Source: Methanobrevibacter sp.
Lineage (GTDB): Archaea; Methanobacteriota; Methanobacteria; Methanobacteriales; Methanobacteriaceae
Assembly: GCF_017432245.1 (NCBI RefSeq)
Contig: NZ_JAFRJO010000028.1
Coordinates: 1 to 51,048 of the forward strand
Direction: 5' to 3'
Length of the DNA stretch: 51,048 bases
Under the pieces are notes generated by a model. It worked only from the letters and a program-made list of their open reading frames with translations. It ran no database searches and had not been told where the DNA came from. This document shows positions 34,021-44,867 of this stretch, piece by piece; within the stretch, counting starts at the first letter, position 1, and each line of letters begins with the position of its first letter. A program made the translations under genes and the position numbers.

Positions 34021-35091
34021 ATGAGCATATTCAATGAAGAACCATTTTTAATAGCTGAAATTGGTGTAAATTACTATGATATTGCAAAAAAGGAAAATAT
34101 AAGCAATATGGATGCAGCTAAACTAATGGTTAAAGAAGCAAAAGATGCAGGTTGCAATGCAGTTAAATTCCAATCATATAAAGCGAATACAATAGCTTCC
34201 AAGAACTCTCCAGCATATTGGGATACAAATGAGGAGCCTACAACTTCACAATACGAATTGTTTAAGAAATTCGATTCCTTTGGAGAAGCGGAATATAGGG
34301 AAATAGCTGATTACTGCAATGAGATTGGAATAATGTTTCTATCAACACCTTTTGACTTTGATTCCATTGATTATTTGGATGAATTCATGGATGTCTATAA
34401 GATATCATCATCAGACCTTACAAACATTCCTTTCATAAAAAAAATTGCAGAAAAAGGAAAGGACATTATCATTTCAACTGGAGCTTCCACTCTTGATGAG
34501 ATTAAATTAGCAATAGACACTATAGAAAAGACCAATGAAAAATACACAAGCGGTGATGCTGGAATAGGAATTATGCATTGTGTCCTTTCATATCCAACTG
34601 ACAACAGCGATGCAAACTTACTTATGATTAAAAACCTTAAGGATTTGTACCCTAACTATGAAATCGGTTACTCAGATCATACAAAGCCTGATGAAAACAT
34701 GCTTATTTTAACAACCGCTTACCTTTATGGAGCAACAATCCTTGAAAAGCATTATACATTAGATAAAACATTGCAAGGAAATGACCATTATCATGGAATG
34801 GACCCAGATGATGTAAGAAAATTCAATGAAAACATAAAACTTATCAAAACAATCAATGGACAATACGATAAGGTCCCTCTATCTTGTGAAAGCGAATCAA
34901 GAAAGCAAGCAAGACGTTCCATTATTGCAAAAGAGGAAATTAAAGAAGGGACAGTGATTTCTGAAGATATGCTCACATACAAAAGACCTGGAACAGGCAT
35001 TTCACCAAGTGAACTAGATAAAATCATCGGTAAAAAGGCAAAAATGGATATTGCTGAAGATGAATTGATTAAATATGAATATTTGGAATAA
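34021..35091 (+). CDS. Nonulosonic acid synthase (NeuB/PseI family)
   Basis: A 356-residue protein. A TIM barrel opens with FLIAEIGVNYYD and carries CNAVKFQSYKANTIA, ISSSDLTNIPFIKKIAE, MHCVLSYPTD and GYSDHTKPDEN; a C-terminal SAF domain with RRSIIAKEEIKEGTVISEDM and KRPGTGISPSEL follows. It condenses phosphoenolpyruvate with an N-acetylated hexose to make a nine-carbon acid. NeuB, LegI and PseI cannot be separated by eye. GGTGA precedes the ATG. It is the second gene of the operon. Confidence 0.95.
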   Translation: MSIFNEEPFLIAEIGVNYYDIAKKENISNMDAAKLMVKEAKDAGCNAVKFQSYKANTIASKNSPAYWDTNEEPTTSQYELFKKFDSFGEAEYREIADYCNEIGIMFLSTPFDFDSIDYLDEFMDVYKISSSDLTNIPFIKKIAEKGKDIIISTGASTLDEIKLAIDTIEKTNEKYTSGDAGIGIMHCVLSYPTDNSDANLLMIKNLKDLYPNYEIGYSDHTKPDENMLILTTAYLYGATILEKHYTLDKTLQGNDHYHGMDPDDVRKFNENIKLIKTINGQYDKVPLSCESESRKQARRSIIAKEEIKEGTVISEDMLTYKRPGTGISPSELDKIIGKKAKMDIAEDELIKYEYLE

Positions 35092-35114
35092 ATTATAATC
35101 ATCAAGGAATTTTT

Positions 35115-36614
35115 ATGACTTTTACAGTGAAAGAGATTTGTCAAGAGATTTGGAATCTTGAAGAGAAATATGAGTTGAATCATAAGGAGATTCAAGGTTG
35201 CTATCCTTGGCAATTGATTAGAATGTATTTATATTATGAAATAACTAGAAAGACAAATGTTTTTGAATCTGCTCAGCAGTCCAGTCTTTCCTTATTTGAT
35301 AAGATAAACTCATTCTTGCCTTTTCTCAAAAACAGCATTTTATCAAACCCTTTAAGCGGGAGAGAAAATGTGGATGTTTTGATATTCGACCATCCAAGAA
35401 AAGTCATATTTGAAGATGAATACCAAGATATCTATAGCTATTTTTTAAAAGACACTCTTAATAAAATTGGGAAAAGTTTTGAAACAATTGAATCCCCTTA
35501 TCTTAATCAACATTTTAGAAACAATGAAAACATTAAGGAAAATAATGTCAAATTCAATGACAGAATTCTCTTAGGTTCATTCATTCATAAAACAAGAAAT
35601 AGAGGAAAATTGTCTTTTACTGAAGATGAAAAGCAACTGATAAATGCAGTGAAAGAAGAGCTTGAAACTGATTTTAAAATTGAAATTGACTTGTTTACAA
35701 TCATAGAAGACCATATCCTGAATTTCCAATATGATTATGAAAAGTATATTGAACTTCTTCAAAGGAAAAATCCTAAAGTCGTATTTCTTGTAGTGGCTTA
35801 TGAAAATAAGGCATTAGTTGCAGCCTGTAAAAAAATGAATATAGAAATTATCGAATTGCAGCATGGAACCATCAGCCCATACCATTTAGGATACAGCTAT
35901 CCGGAAAACACTATGAAATCCAATGATGAAATCAAGGAAATTGAATACTTCCCAGACAAGATTCTAAGTTTTGGAGACTATTGGAAAAATGCTTGTCCAT
36001 TCCCTATAGATAGTGAAAACATTATTTCAATGGGTTTCCCATACTTTGAGGAAAACTCAAAAACATATATGAAAATAGCTGATAAAAAAGATAATGAACC
36101 TAATGATCAAAAGCAAATATTATTCATTTCACAAGGAGTTATTGGAAAATACTTATCTGAATTAGCATATGAAACAGCTTCAAACATCCATGAAAACAAT
36201 GATTCTCAAAATTTCAAATTTATCTATAAATTACATCCAGGGGAATATGGAACTTGGAAGGAAAATTACGATTACCTAACAAAAGCAAACGATGAATTCG
36301 ATAACTTTACTGTAATTGATAAAAGTGAACCTCCATTATACGAACTGTTTGCTAAAAGCCACTACCAAATAGGTGCTTTTTCAACTGCAATCTATGAAGG
36401 GCTTGCATTCAATTGCAAAACTTTCATAATAGATGTTCCTGGTGTGGAATATTTAGATGACCTAATCGATAAGGATATTGTAAAAAAGGTTAAAAACAGT
36501 GAAGAACTAATTAATTACATAAACAGTGAAAACATATCAATTCAAGAATATGATAAGGATTATTTCTTTAAGAGCTTTGATGAAACTATTTTTAAAAGTA
36601 TTTTAAGTGATTAA
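35115..36614 (+). CDS. Putative glycan transferase, unrecognised family
   Basis: A 499-residue protein, soluble, with no signal. The C-terminal half has features of capsule-type transferases of GT-B fold: IIELQHGTISPYHLGYSYPE, KILSFGDYWKN, then FIYKLHPGEYGTW and the phosphate/nucleotide-like region YQIGAFSTAIYEGLAF. These resemble KpsC/S, polysialyltransferase or TagF-type transferases. It stands between a NulO synthase and a flippase with a 23-base gap before and no gap after, so transfer of the CMP-nonulosonate is the simplest guess. Not confirmed; exact family unknown. Confidence 0.75.
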   Translation: MTFTVKEICQEIWNLEEKYELNHKEIQGCYPWQLIRMYLYYEITRKTNVFESAQQSSLSLFDKINSFLPFLKNSILSNPLSGRENVDVLIFDHPRKVIFEDEYQDIYSYFLKDTLNKIGKSFETIESPYLNQHFRNNENIKENNVKFNDRILLGSFIHKTRNRGKLSFTEDEKQLINAVKEELETDFKIEIDLFTIIEDHILNFQYDYEKYIELLQRKNPKVVFLVVAYENKALVAACKKMNIEIIELQHGTISPYHLGYSYPENTMKSNDEIKEIEYFPDKILSFGDYWKNACPFPIDSENIISMGFPYFEENSKTYMKIADKKDNEPNDQKQILFISQGVIGKYLSELAYETASNIHENNDSQNFKFIYKLHPGEYGTWKENYDYLTKANDEFDNFTVIDKSEPPLYELFAKSHYQIGAFSTAIYEGLAFNCKTFIIDVPGVEYLDDLIDKDIVKKVKNSEELINYINSENISIQEYDKDYFFKSFDETIFKSILSD

Positions 36615-38057
36615 ATGAGCGAATATGTGCGATTTATACAAAGAATAGGTTTGGTGGGACTCACAAACATCCTAATCTCTCTCAGTAGCCTAATCTTTAT
36701 TCCAATCATTACAAAGTCATTCACCACCGCAGAATACGGTATGTGGGCACAGGTAAACACTACAATCGCACTTGTTCCAAATATTGCAAATCTTGGACTT
36801 CCATACACAATGGTAAGGTTCCTGTCTGCTGAAAAGGATAAGGAAAAGATCAAGGATTCATTCTATCCAATGATTAGCCTAACATTCATTTCCACATTGA
36901 TAATTTGTTCATTATTCCTAATCTTTGGAAACACAATTGCAAATGCACTATTCAATGGAAGCATGCAAGTATTGTACATAACTACTGCAATCTCATTCTT
37001 CGCATGCATGAACCTGATGCTAATAAGCTTCTTTAGAACATTCCAGAAAATGAAAAGATACTCATTATTCCTTGTTCTTCAAAGTTATATTGGTGTGTTT
37101 GTAAGCATTTACCTCACTTATGCAGGATATAATATTGAAACTGTTGTGCTTGGTCTTTTGACAGGTTATGTGGCAGTATTCATCATGATGGCATTCCTAA
37201 TTGTCAAGTATCTTGGAATTGGAATTGGAAAATGGTCTAACCTAAAGGAACAGCTTGCATTTGCTCTTCCTACAATACCAAGCAATGTGTCCAGTTGGGT
37301 TGTTGATTCAAGCGATAAGTATGTCATCGGAATCCTTATCGGATCAGTTGCAGTTGGATGCTACTCACCAGGATATGCATTAGGAAGCATACTATTAATG
37401 TTCCTTTCCCCATTTGCAGTTCTCCTACCTGCAGTCTTGCCTGAACATTATGAAAAGGGAGACATAGGGGAAGTGGATAAGTATCTCAGCTACTCAATGA
37501 AATACTATCTCTTGCTAACCGTTCCTGCTGCAGTTGGAATGAGTGTGCTTTCAAAGCCATTATTATACATAATCACAACTCCAGAAATTGCACTTGGAGG
37601 TTATATGGTAACTCCTTTCGTTTGCCTTGGAGCAATATTCATGGGAATGTATGGAATAACAAACAATATTCTCATCCTTGAAAAAAATACAATGATTCTT
37701 GGAAAGCTATGGATTGTTGTGGCTATTTCAAATATAGTCTTGAACTTATTGCTTGTTCCTTACCTAAACATCTTAGGAGCAGCCATTGCTACACTTATCT
37801 GCTACATATTGGCATTTGCAGTAACAGCAATTGCAAGCAAGAAAACCATGAGATTGCCATTCAACAGAAATGATCTTTTAAAAATCATTATTGCATCAGC
37901 TATTATGGGAATTGCAGTATATATGATGCATCCAATTGGAATTATTAATGTCTTGATATCCATTGCCACAGGAGTAATCATATACTTTGCAATCATCTTC
38001 ATTTTAAAGGCAGTGACAATAAAAGAAATTGCAATCTTTAAAGATTTGATTCATTAA
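36615..38057 (+). CDS. Wzx-like polysaccharide flippase
   Basis: A 480-residue membrane protein of the MATE/MVF superfamily (polysaccharide export). About 14 hydrophobic helices; the N-terminus FIQRIGLVGLTNILISLSSL and the FFRTFQKMKRYSLFLVLQSY segment are typical. Its ATG follows directly after the stop of the transferase gene, and the ribosome site lies inside that gene end (GTGAT), so translational coupling is certain by layout. It would move lipid-linked glycan across the membrane. Confidence 0.92.
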   Translation: MSEYVRFIQRIGLVGLTNILISLSSLIFIPIITKSFTTAEYGMWAQVNTTIALVPNIANLGLPYTMVRFLSAEKDKEKIKDSFYPMISLTFISTLIICSLFLIFGNTIANALFNGSMQVLYITTAISFFACMNLMLISFFRTFQKMKRYSLFLVLQSYIGVFVSIYLTYAGYNIETVVLGLLTGYVAVFIMMAFLIVKYLGIGIGKWSNLKEQLAFALPTIPSNVSSWVVDSSDKYVIGILIGSVAVGCYSPGYALGSILLMFLSPFAVLLPAVLPEHYEKGDIGEVDKYLSYSMKYYLLLTVPAAVGMSVLSKPLLYIITTPEIALGGYMVTPFVCLGAIFMGMYGITNNILILEKNTMILGKLWIVVAISNIVLNLLLVPYLNILGAAIATLICYILAFAVTAIASKKTMRLPFNRNDLLKIIIASAIMGIAVYMMHPIGIINVLISIATGVIIYFAIIFILKAVTIKEIAIFKDLIH

Positions 38058-38187: not shown

Positions 38188-38694
38188 TTAATGAAACTTT
38201 CCTTCTTTTTTTAACTTTTCATAATGATCCTTATCTCTTGAAGAGAAGACCTTTGCAGGATGCCCACCAGCGATTGCATATTTTGGTATATCATTGACTA
38301 CAACACTTCCCGCTTGAATTATGGCACCTTCACCAATAGTTACCCCTGGAAGAACAATGACACGATTTCCTAACCATACATTGTCTTCAATAACTACATC
38401 CTTAGAGATGACAGTGCTATCATATGGAATAGCCTCACCTTCATAATTATGGCTATCTGTAATAATCATGCATTCTATGCCACTGTGAAAATTATCTCCA
38501 ATGATTACATTGGCTGTTCCTTGAATCTTCATTCCATTGAAATTCACATTGTTTCCAAGACTTGTTTTAGGAGTGATATATGAATAGGCATTGACAGTCA
38601 AATCATTCCCACATGATGCAGATACCCTTTTTACTCTAAAAGTGTAATATTTCCTTTTAATTGACTTAAAAACATTTAAAACTTTAGAAATCAT
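38188..38694 (-). CDS. Hexapeptide-repeat acyltransferase
   Basis: A 168-residue left-handed beta-helix protein. Hexapeptide repeats run from NVNFNGMKIQGTANVIIGDN to VVIEDNVWLGNRVIVLPGVT and GEGAIIQAGSVV, and end with AIAGGHPAKVF, the signature of the maltose/galactoside O-acetyltransferase group. SHNYEG carries the catalytic histidine region. It is convergent with the flippase and probably O- or N-acetylates a cell-surface sugar. It begins at ATG 38694 with GTGAT upstream. Substrate unknown. Confidence 0.88.
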   Translation of the reverse strand: MISKVLNVFKSIKRKYYTFRVKRVSASCGNDLTVNAYSYITPKTSLGNNVNFNGMKIQGTANVIIGDNFHSGIECMIITDSHNYEGEAIPYDSTVISKDVVIEDNVWLGNRVIVLPGVTIGEGAIIQAGSVVVNDIPKYAIAGGHPAKVFSSRDKDHYEKLKKEGKFH

Positions 38695-38814: not shown

Positions 38815-40755
38815 TTATACTACAGAACAGTCTGCAGAATAATAGGATAATAATCTTGCTATCTTAGCAACAGTCAACTCATCAATTCTTCTTTGACCAC
38901 GAATCATTCTATTGAACAATTCATCTATAAAGAGGTCTTCATTGGTAAGAATTACATTTAAAATAGCCAAGTCATCATTAACAAAACCAATTAATGGCTC
39001 AATGTAAATTCCGCTAAATCCTTTATTATCCAAGAAAATAGCTAAATCTTCATTTAACTCTAAAGCTTTGCGTTTGATTTGACTATTGTTTACAAAATGA
39101 ATCTCTTCATTTCCAAATTCAAATCTTGTTTGGTTATCCTTGTAATCAGTTTGAAGCTCTAAAGTATTCTTCTTATCCATGTAATTTTGGATAGAAGCGG
39201 AATCATTTACCATAGCATCTGTTTCACTGTCAGATTTTACCTTATTCTTATAGTCTTTAGAGTCATATCTTTTGGATAAGATGGTATATACACCAGTAGG
39301 CCCAACAACCACATGGTTAATGATATCCTTGGATTGTGGCGGTTGAACTGCATAGAATACATAGAAATCATTTGGAAGTGCAAGCAATCTTTCACGAATG
39401 ATTCTTCCACGAGCGATATAATTATTGAAAGCATATCTTTTGTAAATACCGTAACTTAGAATGAGAACACCTATGGCAATAGCAATCAATACATACCATA
39501 TTTGGCTAATAAAGTAATAATATGCAGCTGAAACGACTAAAATGAATGCTCCAATCAACATGTATAAATCAGCATTGGTTTTCTTAGGTTCATAAGCCCT
39601 ATTTTGAGATTTCATTAGCTCAACTGTTTCTGGAGTGACCAATGCATCCTCTTCGCTTGCGGTTAAGTTTCCACGTTTAACGCTTTCTTCACCTTTTTTG
39701 ATTAAGCGTTTGACAGAACTTCCCTTATAAAATTCCTTATCCATACTTCTGATATATTCATCTTTAAGAACATCAGACAAGGCAGTGTAATACTTATAAC
39801 GAGCAAGCTTAAATGCTTCATACTCTTCAGGACTATCAAAGACCATTTCATTTTGAACTCTTGCAAATAGCTTTTGATCTTCTTCAGACAATTCCTGTCT
39901 AGCTAAAGACACTGGAGATTCAGGCATTTCATCTTCTGGAATGTCAGTGATTTCAACAAGCCTTGTTCCTCCACTTCCATATTCATCTTCATACTCATCT
40001 CTATAAGCAAATCCAGAAGCTATGTCTCTTGAAGTTTCCATATGCCTTCTTTCTGCATGTATAGGAATGATCTCATCAACATCTCCAAGTGTAGAGTCAT
40101 AAATTGAACCATAAGAAATCATTTCTTCCTCTTCATATGATTCTAATGTATCAGGCAATATCTCTTCAGTTTCATAATAATATTCCTCATCAGCATATCC
40201 TGCATCTTGAGCATTTAACTCAGCATGTATAGGAATGATTTCGTCAACATCAGAACTAGCATAGAGAGAATCATCTACATAATTAGCTTCCGCATGAATA
40301 GGAATAATCTCATCAACATCAGAACTAGCATAGAGAGAATCATCTACATAATTAGCTTCCATATGAATAGGAATAATCTCATCGATTTCATCATCAGCGA
40401 GCGGGGTTTCTGTGAGTGGGTTTTGTGTATAATAAGTTGAATAAGTGGTTTCGGTTGATGCAGAGTCCATATTGGAAACGTAATCTAATGAACCTCCACA
40501 GCTATTGCATTCAAATTCGTTAATATTGTCATTTTCAGTCAATTGATATTTCAATCCGCAATTAGTACAATAAACAAGTACTAAATCAGAAGGATTCTGC
40601 GAATCATAACCAGAGGAAACTTTTTCTTCATCGTTTGAGAAGCTATCCAATTCCTCTAGATTTCCAGAACAAACAGAACATTCAAATGCGTTAATATCAT
40701 CTTCGTCATCAAGTTGATATTTTTCACCACAGTTCTGACAAACTACCACTTTCAT
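38815..40755 (-). CDS. Zinc-ribbon, repeat and NERD-like domain membrane protein
   Basis: About 646 residues. Two CxxC...CxxC zinc ribbons (Cys6/9/26/29 and Cys63/66/83/86) are followed by an acidic region with DEIIPIHxE repeats at residues 125, 148, 171 and 227, a helical region (290-390), two transmembrane helices (about 395-437), and a C-terminal domain whose start (NHVVVGPTGVYTILSKRY) resembles the NERD nuclease-related domain. ATG 40755 follows AGGG; a longer TTG start at 40797 lacks a ribosome site. Architecture not recognised. Location in the cell and function unknown. Confidence 0.82.
   Translation of the reverse strand: MKVVVCQNCGEKYQLDDEDDINAFECSVCSGNLEELDSFSNDEEKVSSGYDSQNPSDLVLVYCTNCGLKYQLTENDNINEFECNSCGGSLDYVSNMDSASTETTYSTYYTQNPLTETPLADDEIDEIIPIHMEANYVDDSLYASSDVDEIIPIHAEANYVDDSLYASSDVDEIIPIHAELNAQDAGYADEEYYYETEEILPDTLESYEEEEMISYGSIYDSTLGDVDEIIPIHAERRHMETSRDIASGFAYRDEYEDEYGSGGTRLVEITDIPEDEMPESPVSLARQELSEEDQKLFARVQNEMVFDSPEEYEAFKLARYKYYTALSDVLKDEYIRSMDKEFYKGSSVKRLIKKGEESVKRGNLTASEEDALVTPETVELMKSQNRAYEPKKTNADLYMLIGAFILVVSAAYYYFISQIWYVLIAIAIGVLILSYGIYKRYAFNNYIARGRIIRERLLALPNDFYVFYAVQPPQSKDIINHVVVGPTGVYTILSKRYDSKDYKNKVKSDSETDAMVNDSASIQNYMDKKNTLELQTDYKDNQTRFEFGNEEIHFVNNSQIKRKALELNEDLAIFLDNKGFSGIYIEPLIGFVNDDLAILNVILTNEDLFIDELFNRMIRGQRRIDELTVAKIARLLSYYSADCSVV
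40250..40387 (-). repeat. 69-bp near-identical coding tandem repeat
   Basis: Two adjoining 69-bp copies (40250-40318 and 40319-40387) code the 23-residue unit ending in DEIIPIHxEANYVDDSLYASS. They differ at only a few bases. Single shorter copies of the DEIIPIHAE core occur further into the protein. Confidence 0.85.
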
Positions 40756-40955: not shown

Positions 40956-42170
40956 TTAGAGAAATCTCTTATAGATTTCTAAAATTTGACTATTAATTAT
41001 GTCCCAATTATATTTCTCTTTTATTAGTTTCTTGCCGTTTTCAGCAAAAATGAGAGACATTTCCTCATCGAATAAGATTTTTTCAATAGCTTGTCTTAAA
41101 GAGTCCTTATTGTCTTCACAAGCGAGACCTACATTTCCATCCACCCAATCGTGAATATGATTATTTTTAGTCAATACCAAAGGTTTGGAACATGCCATTG
41201 CCTCAAGACCACTTGTTGTAAATGATTCATATTTGGAAGGCATGACAAATAGGTCACAATCAACTAAAGCCTCTTGCTTTTCCTCCTTATACAATGGACC
41301 AGTGATAATGACATTTTCTTCAAGAGAGTATTCTTTAATCTTTTCTTCCAGTTTAACTAAATATCCATCATCAGGACCTACAATAGCTAACTTAATGCAA
41401 GAACTATCAATATCCTCTAAAATGTTTTCTTCATCATTTTCTTCATCATTCTGATTAATCAAATCATTAAAGGCATCTATCAATAGATCAAGCCCTTTTA
41501 TTTCATGGATTCTTCCAACAAAAAGAATTAACTTATCATTTTCATCAATATTGAATTTAGAGCGGAATTTTCCAAAAGATGGAAGGTTCTCATACTCTTC
41601 CAAATTGATTCCAAGAGGAACAATTTCTATTTTATCCTCATCAACACCCATTTTCAAATATTGTTCCTTTTCAACTTCTGTAAGAGCAAATACACATGAT
41701 GCATTGTGAAGCATCTTAAAGCCAAAGACTTTATCAAAAAGATTCTTTAACCCTTCCTTTTGGAAAAATGGAAGAACAGAACCGTGGGCCTGTACAATGT
41801 ATGGAATATTGTTTTTCCTTGCAAAATAGCTTGCAATAATGGCTAAGGTTTGTCTATGCTCATGAATATGCACAATTTCATAGTCTTTAATGTCTTTTCT
41901 AATCTTAAATGGGGCTGTCAAAGGAGTGTCTAACATGGTTTTAAGCTTAAATCTGTTAGATAGGTTTCTGAAATAATCAACTTTGATTCCATCTACATCA
42001 ACATCATAACGACCTTTTGGGAATTTTAATCTTTCCTTACATGAGTCTGAGCTGATAACCTTCACGTCATTATCCTTGCTTTGATTGGATGCAATTTGAT
42101 AGCTTGCATTAACCACTCCTCCTGCAGACAAGCAAGGATAAAAGAAATGTGCAACATGTAAAATTTTCAT
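40956..42170 (-). CDS. Glycosyltransferase, GT4 family
   Basis: About 404 residues with the GT-B fold. MKILHVAHFFYPCLSAGGV is the typical N-terminal loop, HIHEHRQTLAI is at the acceptor site, LFVGRIHEIKGLDLLIDAF and VMPSKYESFTTSGLEAMACS (with the E-x7-E motif) are donor-site features. Start at ATG 42170 is preferred as GGTGA lies five bases upstream; an earlier ATG at 42182 would include it. It probably adds a sugar to a cell-wall or lipid-linked glycan. Donor not predictable. Confidence 0.9.
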   Translation of the reverse strand: MKILHVAHFFYPCLSAGGVVNASYQIASNQSKDNDVKVISSDSCKERLKFPKGRYDVDVDGIKVDYFRNLSNRFKLKTMLDTPLTAPFKIRKDIKDYEIVHIHEHRQTLAIIASYFARKNNIPYIVQAHGSVLPFFQKEGLKNLFDKVFGFKMLHNASCVFALTEVEKEQYLKMGVDEDKIEIVPLGINLEEYENLPSFGKFRSKFNIDENDKLILFVGRIHEIKGLDLLIDAFNDLINQNDEENDEENILEDIDSSCIKLAIVGPDDGYLVKLEEKIKEYSLEENVIITGPLYKEEKQEALVDCDLFVMPSKYESFTTSGLEAMACSKPLVLTKNNHIHDWVDGNVGLACEDNKDSLRQAIEKILFDEEMSLIFAENGKKLIKEKYNWDIINSQILEIYKRFL

Positions 42171-42216
42171 AAAATTCACCATCTTAAAATTTATGATTAA
42201 AACATTAAATCATATT

Positions 42217-43932
42217 TTAATTAATCCTCTCGTATAAATATAAACCTTCTTTTTGATAAATAATAGTGTAATTTGATAGATTGAAATTGTCATCAGATAT
42301 GTAATAAGTGATATTGCTTGACTCCAAATAATCCAATTGATCATCTGTAATTGGAATTGTATACTTCTTTAGGAACCAATTGTAAGACCTTTGATGGAAT
42401 ACAGCAACATCCTTTGACATATAATCAGAATCATATTCAGTTAAATAATCTGCAATTACCTTATTCTTATTGAAATCCTCATTATAATTAACTGTAGAAG
42501 TGAATGTAAATGCAGAGAATATGCAAAATAGAATCAGGATTATTGGAATAACCTTTAAAATATTCTGTTTTTTAAACTCAAAGAACTCCAATTTCCTAGA
42601 CAAATCCAAAATCTCATTTAAGGCATAGATTACAAAATAAATGAAAGCAGGAAATACGGTTATGATGTATCTATTCACCTTAATATTCAAGAATGTGAAG
42701 AAGATGAAGTAAACCAATAACCATGCCAACATAAGCATATCTGTTGAATATAACTCCCTATCAATGCCAATTTTCCTGAAAAATGAAAACAGAATAACCA
42801 AATCAATTAATATGATAGTGATTGTGATAAGTGAATTTATCTTAAAGCATAGAATTGAAATTGCTAAGAGCACAATAAATAAAATACCTACATGATACTT
42901 GTATTTAGACTCTTCTTTTTTCTTAGCGTTAATCAATTTATATCCAAAATACAAAATTCCAATGGCAAATAGTCCAATCAAGAAAAATGACATTGGATTT
43001 GAACCGTTTAATACTGGAATTACATTATCAAAGCTTACATAATCTGAGTATAGGAAATTCGGAAAGTCATGAAGATAAAAGAATGTATCTGTTGTATATG
43101 CATTATCAATCACTTCCCCTTTAGAACCTGAGGCAAATGTAGAACTTTGTGTTAAGAATGACAAATTAGATCCATATGCTAAAATTGTGGCTGAAAAGAG
43201 CACGACTAAAACGAAAGCTATTGCACATGCTTTTAAAATATTCCTAAATTCCTCGCTTTTTATGTAGGATTTAAGTTTTCTAGAAAATTCTTTCCCATCC
43301 CCAATCAATAAATCCAAATTTGTGAAAAAATCATGCTTGGAAAGGTAATACAAAAGTATCAAAGGGAGTAAAAATAATGCAGTGTAACGTGTGAAAACAG
43401 CTAAAACAAAGAATGGAATAGCTATCATATAATACTTTGAATCCTTATCAACTGCAAGAATTGTAAAAATGATTGCCCATATGGATAAAGCGACTGCAGG
43501 AACATCCAATGTCCCATTTGCCCACCAAAGCAAAGTAAGGGAAAAACTACCAAAAAGAAATGCACCGCAAAGGCTTAATAAGGAACTGAACTTATTCTTC
43601 AAAAGCACGTAAATGCCTAAATTTGCAAATATGCAAAAGATTCCAGTTATTAAATAAAGAGCGGCTTCAGATAAAAATCCTAATTTGAATAGAATAGCTG
43701 TTAAAATACAAATGACTGGAGATAAGTACAGATATAGGATACTTGATTCATAACCTGCAAAAACAAGAGAATTGGACAAATAAATAAAAACGTCTGAACA
43801 GTAAATTCCTAAAACCAGATTGAAATTTATTAGGGCATAAGTTATGAGAATGCTAAAAATTGTTAAAATGAATAGATAGAAAAAATCATTCTTAGAGACA
43901 TTTAAATCATCAAAAAATTTTTTAAACATCAT
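42217..43932 (-). CDS. GT39-like membrane glycosyltransferase
   Basis: A 571-residue polytopic protein with a dozen or so hydrophobic helices and an extracytoplasmic C-terminal domain. ALINFNLVLGIYCSDVF includes the early acidic residue expected in the first loop, and ALSIWAIIFTILAVDKDSKY with FFVLAVFTRYTALFLLPLIL are typical of ArnT/PMT-like lipid-linked sugar transferases. It would use a polyprenyl-phosphate sugar. It lies between two GT genes on the minus strand. The exact substrate is unknown. Confidence 0.85.
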   Translation of the reverse strand: MMFKKFFDDLNVSKNDFFYLFILTIFSILITYALINFNLVLGIYCSDVFIYLSNSLVFAGYESSILYLYLSPVICILTAILFKLGFLSEAALYLITGIFCIFANLGIYVLLKNKFSSLLSLCGAFLFGSFSLTLLWWANGTLDVPAVALSIWAIIFTILAVDKDSKYYMIAIPFFVLAVFTRYTALFLLPLILLYYLSKHDFFTNLDLLIGDGKEFSRKLKSYIKSEEFRNILKACAIAFVLVVLFSATILAYGSNLSFLTQSSTFASGSKGEVIDNAYTTDTFFYLHDFPNFLYSDYVSFDNVIPVLNGSNPMSFFLIGLFAIGILYFGYKLINAKKKEESKYKYHVGILFIVLLAISILCFKINSLITITIILIDLVILFSFFRKIGIDRELYSTDMLMLAWLLVYFIFFTFLNIKVNRYIITVFPAFIYFVIYALNEILDLSRKLEFFEFKKQNILKVIPIILILFCIFSAFTFTSTVNYNEDFNKNKVIADYLTEYDSDYMSKDVAVFHQRSYNWFLKKYTIPITDDQLDYLESSNITYYISDDNFNLSNYTIIYQKEGLYLYERIN

Positions 43933-43994: not shown

Positions 43995-44867
43995 CTATAA
44001 AAAACTAAAAATATTAAAAGATCCCACTACAAATGCTATAAAACTGATTAGCATAGCTATCTTTAGATTTTTAGAAACTTTTGCACATGTCTCTTCAGGG
44101 GGGTTCAACTTTAAGCTATAAGCGCTATACAAGAATATGATTATAGGTATAATCATTATAATCATATACCCAAGATTAAAAATTTTGAAAATGTAAAGAA
44201 TAGGACACATTAAAGTTGTTACAACAATCAAAATTATTGATATGATTGAAGAGATCTTTTTACCATATAAAATAGGAAAAGTTCTTGCTCCTTCCTGTTT
44301 ATCTCCCTCAATATCTTCCATGTCCTTTACTATTTCACGTGCTAATGTCATGAACATTGCAAATAATCCTAAATAAATTGAGATGAATAAAATCTTTAAT
44401 GAACTTGTAGCGCATGCTATTACAACACCTGCGATTACAAAACAGAACCCTGTTAAAGTAGCTACAGTGAGATTTCCAATGAGTGGCATGGCCTTTAAGT
44501 TTCTTGCATAAAGATACATTATGATTGCAGCAGGAATGACAATTACAGAAGGCCAAATTGAATTTACCAAATAACTGTCTACAAAACTTAAAACAATGCC
44601 TATTCCAAAGAGAACAAAAGCATAATTTCTTGCATTTTCAAGACTGATTCTTCCTGATGGAATAGGGCGATTAGGCTTGTTGATTTCATCTATCTTCACA
44701 TCAAAAACATCATTTATAGTGTTTCCTGCACCAGTACATATGAAAACAATCAACGCACAGATGATTATAGGCAAAGCATAATAATGCCCAACAAACATCA
44801 TCAAGATTACAGCAATAGCTGCCATAACTGCATTTCCTAGACGGATAATTTCTAAATAAGCATTCAT
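43995..44867 (-). CDS. Digeranylgeranylglyceryl phosphate synthase-like UbiA prenyltransferase
   Basis: A 290-residue UbiA-family protein with about eight helices. Both aspartate motifs are present, NDVFDVKIDEINKPNRPIP and DMEDIEGDKQEGARTFPI. The archaeal (S)-2,3-di-O-geranylgeranylglyceryl phosphate synthase of this size adds the second geranylgeranyl chain to the membrane lipid precursor. GAGGA precedes the ATG. It sits between glycosyltransferase genes, away from other lipid genes, so independent expression is likely. Confidence 0.9.
   Translation of the reverse strand: MNAYLEIIRLGNAVMAAIAVILMMFVGHYYALPIIICALIVFICTGAGNTINDVFDVKIDEINKPNRPIPSGRISLENARNYAFVLFGIGIVLSFVDSYLVNSIWPSVIVIPAAIIMYLYARNLKAMPLIGNLTVATLTGFCFVIAGVVIACATSSLKILFISIYLGLFAMFMTLAREIVKDMEDIEGDKQEGARTFPILYGKKISSIISIILIVVTTLMCPILYIFKIFNLGYMIIMIIPIIIFLYSAYSLKLNPPEETCAKVSKNLKIAMLISFIAFVVGSFNIFSFL

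What the first reader, a model, noticed from the sequence alone, without database searches (positions are those of the whole stretch)
38815..40755. Zinc-ribbon + repeat + two-helix + NERD-like protein
Two N-terminal zinc ribbons, an acidic repeat region, two membrane helices and a C-terminal domain like the nuclease-related NERD domain form an architecture I do not know. It could be a membrane-bound nucleic-acid sensor or a defence protein, but nothing around it proves this.
Basis: inference. Interest (0 to 1): 0.6.

Follow-up and report, generated by a model that had tools for sequence, protein, structure and literature searches.

The report
Membrane protein with dead nuclease-like domain
This is a real, single-copy gene of gut methanogens (Methanobrevibacter and close kin) whose nuclease-like end has lost its cutting residues yet is the most strongly preserved part, so it most likely works as a membrane-held binding platform rather than as a DNA-cutting or anti-virus protein.

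Summary
The minus-strand ORF (ATG at 40755, stop at 38815; 646 aa) has two zinc ribbons, an acidic repeat linker, a two-helix membrane hairpin and a C-terminal NERD homologue. The C-terminus is a genuine but degenerate NERD domain. In 34 of 34 long-form relatives the catalytic Glu of the ExK motif is Leu/Ile/Val/Phe, the Asp is Asn in 29, and the Lys is Gln in 20. Thirteen genomes (Methanobacterium- and Methanothermobacter-like) carry a ~290-aa zinc-ribbon/two-helix/NERD cousin with the motif intact; no genome has both forms. The dead domain evolves slowest (dN/dS 0.02-0.06). The gene is single-copy in 106 of 151 Methanobacteriota genomes. In 7 of 9 genera it lies in a lipid/glycan cluster (UbiA, PMT, GT4). 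It has no viral relatives and no meaningful defence-library match. I favour a non-catalytic membrane scaffold for envelope assembly, comparable to SmdA of Staphylococcus, but no function was tested. Side result: in one genus (4/4 species) the gene is split by a -1 frame break at a conserved A9-A10 run, and the downstream frame lacks an ATG but is under purifying selection: a candidate slippage-recoded archaeal gene.

The parts
38815..40755 (-). Gene for the 646-aa zinc-ribbon / acidic linker / membrane hairpin / pseudo-NERD protein (stop included)
   Evidence: ORF with ATG; orthologues across Methanobrevibacter-like genera; purifying selection
40636..40755 (-). Zinc ribbon 1 (aa 1-40, CxxC at 6 and 26), net charge -8
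   Evidence: Sequence and alignment of relatives; weak Pfam Zn_ribbon_4 match
40471..40587 (-). Zinc ribbon 2 (aa 57-95, CxxC at 63 and 83), net charge -5
   Evidence: matches zinc ribbons of SprT and TFE-alpha models weakly
39586..40470 (-). Acidic low-complexity linker (aa 96-390) with four DEIIPIH-type motifs; variable in length and repeat number among relatives
   Evidence: dN/dS 0.15-0.26, higher than the NERD part
39436..39579 (-). Two-helix membrane hairpin (aa 393-440); positive residues on both flanks suggest both ends are cytoplasmic (inference)
   Evidence: Hydropathy scan; conserved in relatives
38818..39435 (-). Degenerate NERD domain (aa 441-646); canonical Asp = N480, Glu of ExK = L493, Lys = K495
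   Evidence: dN/dS 0.016-0.062
40956..42182 (-). GT4 glycosyltransferase, gene immediately upstream, same strand
   Evidence: Pfam Glycos_transf_1 5e-32; same position in most genera
42217..43932 (-). PMT_2-like membrane glycosyltransferase
   Evidence: Pfam PMT_2 1e-10; conserved neighbour
43995..44867 (-). UbiA-family prenyltransferase (digeranylgeranylglyceryl-phosphate-synthase-like, inference)
   Evidence: Pfam UbiA 1.8e-41; conserved neighbour
38188..38694 (-). Hexapeptide-repeat acetyltransferase, downstream, same strand
   Evidence: Pfam Hexapep 3e-14; conserved downstream neighbour in four genera

Best explanation
A membrane-anchored, non-catalytic scaffold or regulator that arose when a zinc-ribbon/two-helix/NERD membrane protein lost its nuclease site, gained a second zinc ribbon and gained a long acidic disordered linker in the ancestor of the Methanobrevibacter-like genera. 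The hairpin holds the protein in the membrane with both ends in the cytoplasm. The dead NERD domain is the conserved binding module at the membrane, and the two acidic zinc ribbons on their flexible tether are a second protein-binding head. The client machinery is most likely envelope lipid/glycan assembly and its coordination with growth or division, as with SmdA of Staphylococcus (a membrane-anchored, degenerate-NERD protein that binds cell-wall and division proteins). Shown: the anatomy, the homology, the loss of catalytic residues, the selection pattern, the distribution and the gene neighbourhood. Inferred: direction of the evolutionary change, topology, protein binding and the envelope role.
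For: NERD homology. Loss of E, D, K and the GE motif across the clade. Strongest purifying selection on the dead domain. Single clade with 100/100 support, separate from the intact-motif cousins. One copy per genome, nearly universal in the clade, never together with the intact form. Neighbourhood UbiA-PMT-GT4-target-acetyltransferase, in whole or part, in 7 of 9 genera. Zinc ribbons and linker are acidic, which argues for protein rather than nucleic-acid partners. SmdA precedent: membrane helix plus degenerate NERD, binds division and wall proteins, conserved NERD residues needed (PMC9040797).
Against: The link to the glycan cluster is absent in two genera (g2, g4), where the gene stands elsewhere. 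The gene persists in genomes without a close GT4 orthologue (g5, g2, g4). No direct sequence comparison with SmdA could be made. No confident structure model was obtained (mean pLDDT 40 and 36). No expression, localisation or interaction data exist here.
Confidence: 0.4

Rival explanations
1. Nucleoid-membrane tether: the dead NERD domain still binds DNA without cutting it and anchors the chromosome to the membrane, with the zinc ribbons recruiting a partner.
For: NERD belongs to a nuclease superfamily; the authors of the SmdA paper raise a nucleoid link as speculation (PMC9040797); Lys561 is kept in 34 of 34 long-form relatives.
Against: Zinc ribbons, linker and NERD domain are all net negative (-8, -5, -48, -5), and catalytic-site residues are lost.
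Confidence: 0.2
2. Metal- or redox-responsive regulator of the neighbouring lipid/glycan enzymes, with the zinc ribbons as the sensor and the pseudo-NERD as the enzyme-docking part.
For: Conserved paired zinc ribbons and conserved glycan/lipid neighbours.
Against: No direct evidence of a sensing role; structural zinc is the commoner use of such ribbons; the neighbourhood is lost in two genera.
Confidence: 0.15
3. Active or sensing nuclease in antiviral defence.
For: NERD domains occur in some defence proteins (established knowledge); membrane plus zinc ribbon is compatible with a sensor-effector.
Against: Catalytic Glu replaced by a hydrophobic residue in all long forms; core, single-copy, clade-wide pattern; no meaningful PADLOC match; no viral relatives; no defence genes beside it.
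Confidence: 0.06
4. Decaying pseudogene of a NERD nuclease.
For: Catalytic residues lost; gene split in some genomes.
Against: dN/dS of 0.016-0.062 in the dead domain and an open frame in nearly all genomes.
Confidence: 0.01

Closest known systems
NERD domain family (Pfam PF08378)
   Same: C-terminal domain homologous: 27 of 32 relatives match, best E 1.5e-8; profile match 99.7% to Pfam-recognised members.
   Different: All key catalytic-motif residues degenerate; window protein itself is below the gathering score; carries a clade-specific insertion and C-terminus (EPLVGFVN, LTDEDLF).
Zinc-ribbon/two-helix/NERD proteins of ~290 aa in Methanobacterium- and Methanothermobacter-like genomes
   Same: Same order of one zinc ribbon, membrane hairpin and NERD; NERD E down to 1e-26.
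   Different: One zinc ribbon, no long linker, intact D...ExK motif; different gene neighbours; never in the same genome as the long form.
SmdA of Staphylococcus aureus (PMC9040797)
   Same: Membrane-anchored cytoplasmic degenerate NERD domain; several conserved NERD residues missing; conserved in its clade.
   Different: One membrane helix at the N-terminus, no zinc ribbons or acidic repeat linker described; no direct sequence comparison was run here.
A-run recoded genes: dnaX of Thermus thermophilus (A9 slippage, PMC1088944) and the Sulfolobus alpha-fucosidase -1 frameshift (PMC8211752)
   Same: Genus g6 orthologues have an A9-A10 run where the frame changes by -1.
   Different: No conserved RNA stem-loop after the run; not tested experimentally; does not concern the window's own copy, which is one open frame.

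Membership tests
NERD (PF08378) | Sequence-profile similarity to the NERD domain | tested here: met
   Via relatives and profile-profile comparison; window protein alone sub-threshold
NERD (PF08378) | Conserved nuclease-type residues (Glu of the GE motif, Asp of IDH, ExK) | tested here: not met
   E of GE lost in 32/34, D to N in 29/34, E of ExK to L/I/V/F in 34/34, K to Q in 20/34
NERD (PF08378) | PD-(D/E)XK-type fold | tested here: inconclusive
   Structure models too poor (mean pLDDT 40 and 36); no solved relative found by sequence
Anti-phage defence protein | Match to a known defence family or defence-gene neighbourhood | tested here: not met
   Only a weak sub-domain hit over the zinc ribbon (E 0.0014); neighbours are lipid/glycan genes
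Anti-phage defence protein | Patchy distribution and presence on mobile or viral DNA | tested here: not met
   Core, single-copy and clade-wide; no viral relatives
SmdA-like cell-envelope/division protein | Membrane-anchored degenerate NERD domain | tested here: met
   SmdA description from PMC9040797
SmdA-like cell-envelope/division protein | Sequence kinship with SmdA itself | not tested
SmdA-like cell-envelope/division protein | Septal localisation and binding to division or wall-synthesis proteins | not testable with these tools
   Needs cell biology

The most novel reading that the evidence does not exclude
In one Methanobrevibacter-like genus (g6) the gene has become a programmed-recoding gene. 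Slippage on a conserved A9-A10 run lets the cell make both a short soluble zinc-ribbon protein and the full membrane-anchored pseudo-NERD protein, which would show that the two halves have separate, dosed functions. It would be one of very few recoded cellular genes in archaea.
Probability: 0.5. Interest if true: 0.6.

Novelty: new variant of a known kind. Interest (0 to 1): 0.42.

Why it matters
It is an undescribed core membrane protein of the main gut and rumen methanogens, in which a nuclease-related domain has been turned into what looks like a binding module under very strong selection. If it serves envelope growth or division, NERD-derived scaffolds would have arisen in both a walled bacterium (SmdA) and walled archaea, and the gene would be a new handle on methanogen envelope biology. 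The split, A-run-linked version in one genus would make archaeal slippage or frameshifting directly testable on a natural gene.

Tried and rejected
Pfam, NCBIfam and PADLOC on the window protein gave no family above cut-off. The PF08378 search of the window's own genome found nothing above threshold, because the domain is degenerate. Structure prediction was tried twice with the permitted close relatives; both models were poor, so no fold search was run. Viral-contig scans found no relatives. The PDB sequence search found none. Rfam found nothing around the gene. No Methanobrevibacter paper mentions the NERD domain in the library searched; the M. smithii division and vesicle papers do not mention this protein in the passages found. 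An RNA stem-loop after the g6 A-run was considered and not found. Frame breaks in G014 and G006 were set apart: they lie in the repeat linker (by inspection a 5-bp duplication and a 1-bp loss) and look like ordinary mutations or assembly faults.

Full report
Observation. The ORF at 38815-40755 lies on the minus strand, starts with ATG at 40755 and encodes 646 aa. The window is contig C89 of a 1.69-Mb draft genome, and its nearest relatives are Methanobrevibacter. CxxC pairs stand at aa 6/26 and 63/83. DEIIPIH motifs stand at aa 125, 148, 171 and 227. Hydrophobic helices span aa 393-411 and 413-440. The linker is acidic (net -48 over aa 96-300), and the repeat is visible in DNA as a 69-nt unit with 2.3 copies. 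The repeat motif is confined to near relatives of the window; a low-complexity linker is general in the family.

NERD homology. Pfam NERD is sub-threshold for the window protein (15.9 bits, cut-off 22.1). Of 32 C-terminal domains from relatives, 27 match NERD, best E 1.5e-8. A profile of the long forms matches a profile of eleven ~290-aa proteins at 99.7% probability, E 1.2e-25, and all eleven are Pfam NERD (best E 1.1e-26).

Catalytic residues. In all eleven shorter cousins the GE motif, the Asp of IDH, the ExK and a later Gln are invariant. In the 34 long forms the Glu of ExK is L, I, V or F in every one. The Asp is Asn in 29, the Glu of GE is lost in 32, and the Lys is Gln in 20. H481, G485 and G488 are kept. 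The Glu loss is universal and replaces a charged with a hydrophobic residue, so a working nuclease of the usual type is very unlikely. A wholly rebuilt active site cannot be excluded without a structure.

Selection and descent. Between the window and four same-genus relatives, dN/dS is 0.016-0.048 in the NERD part, 0.086-0.18 in the zinc ribbons and 0.15-0.26 in the linker; for a fifth, more distant relative the NERD value is 0.062. The dead domain is thus the most constrained part. In a tree of 49 domains the long forms and the intact cousins fall on two sides of one branch with 100/100 support; the root is not fixed.

Distribution. Of 151 Methanobacteriota genomes, 119 have a match. Thirteen of these are intact-motif cousins (genera g9, g17, g18, g19) and 106 are long forms, at one place per genome apart from three genomes where one gene shows as two adjoining pieces. 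No genome has both forms. The long form is present in 18 of the 19 g1 genomes searched, the exception being 62% complete, and absent from all g3 genomes listed. This is a core-gene pattern, not a defence-gene pattern.

Neighbourhood. In g1, g6, g10 and g16 the gene usually follows a GT4 glycosyltransferase on the same strand, often with a PMT-like membrane protein and UbiA further upstream, and is followed by a hexapeptide acetyltransferase. In g15 it follows GT4 near UbiA. In g5 it directly follows the PMT-like gene and UbiA. In g7 UbiA and PMT lie close but inverted. In g2 and g4 the neighbours differ. Gaps of 57-660 nt in most of these make a separate promoter likely (inference). The GT4 and PMT-like genes are also close together in cousin-bearing genomes (for example G070 315-317 kb), where the intact NERD gene lies elsewhere (406 kb). 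The linkage of the pseudo-NERD gene to this pair is therefore a trait of the long-form clade. Neighbourhood is suggestive only.

Mechanism. The hairpin puts both ends on one side of the membrane, most likely the cytoplasm, given KK before and KR..R..R after it (sequence; inference). Zinc ribbons and NERD part are net negative, which favours protein partners. SmdA of S. aureus is the one studied degenerate-NERD membrane protein. It localises to the septum, binds division and wall proteins and needs conserved NERD residues (PMC9040797). I therefore propose a membrane scaffold for envelope assembly or its timing, at 0.4. That the domain is a non-cutting NERD I hold at about 0.9.

Side result in genus g6. 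In all four g6 genomes the zinc-ribbon half and the membrane/NERD half are in two overlapping frames, the second shifted by -1. The overlap (28-34 nt) holds A9 (three species) or A10 (one) at the same alignment position. In 35 kb of g6 coding DNA the only four A9+ runs are these four. The downstream frame has no ATG before the membrane helices and no shared alternative start, yet its TM+NERD part shows dN/dS of 0.14-0.24. No stem-loop follows, which points to polymerase slippage rather than classical ribosomal frameshifting. A9 is a known slippage length, as in dnaX of Thermus (PMC1088944). Experimentally shown archaeal frameshifting is essentially limited to one Sulfolobus gene (PMC8211752, PMC8037382). 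A caution: A9-A10 runs also occur in the still-open linker of a g7 relative (L034), so such runs are not unique to the break. A shared mutation with two separately started products is not fully excluded.

Limits. Both structure models are too poor to use. SmdA could not be compared by sequence. No functional data exist for this gene in the sources searched.

Noticed in passing
L082:6500-6680, L083:7410-7590, L084:3950-4130, L085:4630-4810 (genomes G054, G023, G039, G048): In genus g6 the orthologue is split by a -1 frame break at a conserved A9-A10 run; the downstream frame lacks an ATG but is under purifying selection. Candidate slippage or frameshift recoding.
   Followed up: yes
L087 / L062 (G014) and L008 (G006): Two further frame breaks in the repeat linker of g1 orthologues, by inspection a 5-bp duplication (TATTC twice) and a 1-bp loss; the repeat linker may be prone to slipped-strand change, or the assemblies are faulty.
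   Followed up: partly
window 40956-43932; G070:C1:315377-317180; G061:C1:577662-579404; G063:C9:2677-4393: A GT4 glycosyltransferase gene and a PMT-like membrane gene stay close together across Methanobacteriota, down to Methanothermobacter-like genomes; an old functional pair of unknown product.
   Followed up: partly
window 34021-38057 (+): NeuB, a 499-aa protein without any Pfam match, and a Polysacc_synt flippase lie in a co-directional run opposite the target gene: a surface sialic-acid-like glycan locus.
   Followed up: no
L034:796-2232 (G040, genus g7): Intact orthologue with A9, A9, A9 and A10 runs in the linker, unusual for coding DNA; slippage there would also change frame.
   Followed up: no
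genus g3 (G020, G036, G052, G056, G163-G172): The genus, probably Methanosphaera, lacks both the long and the intact form; a loss that could be set against cell shape.
   Followed up: no
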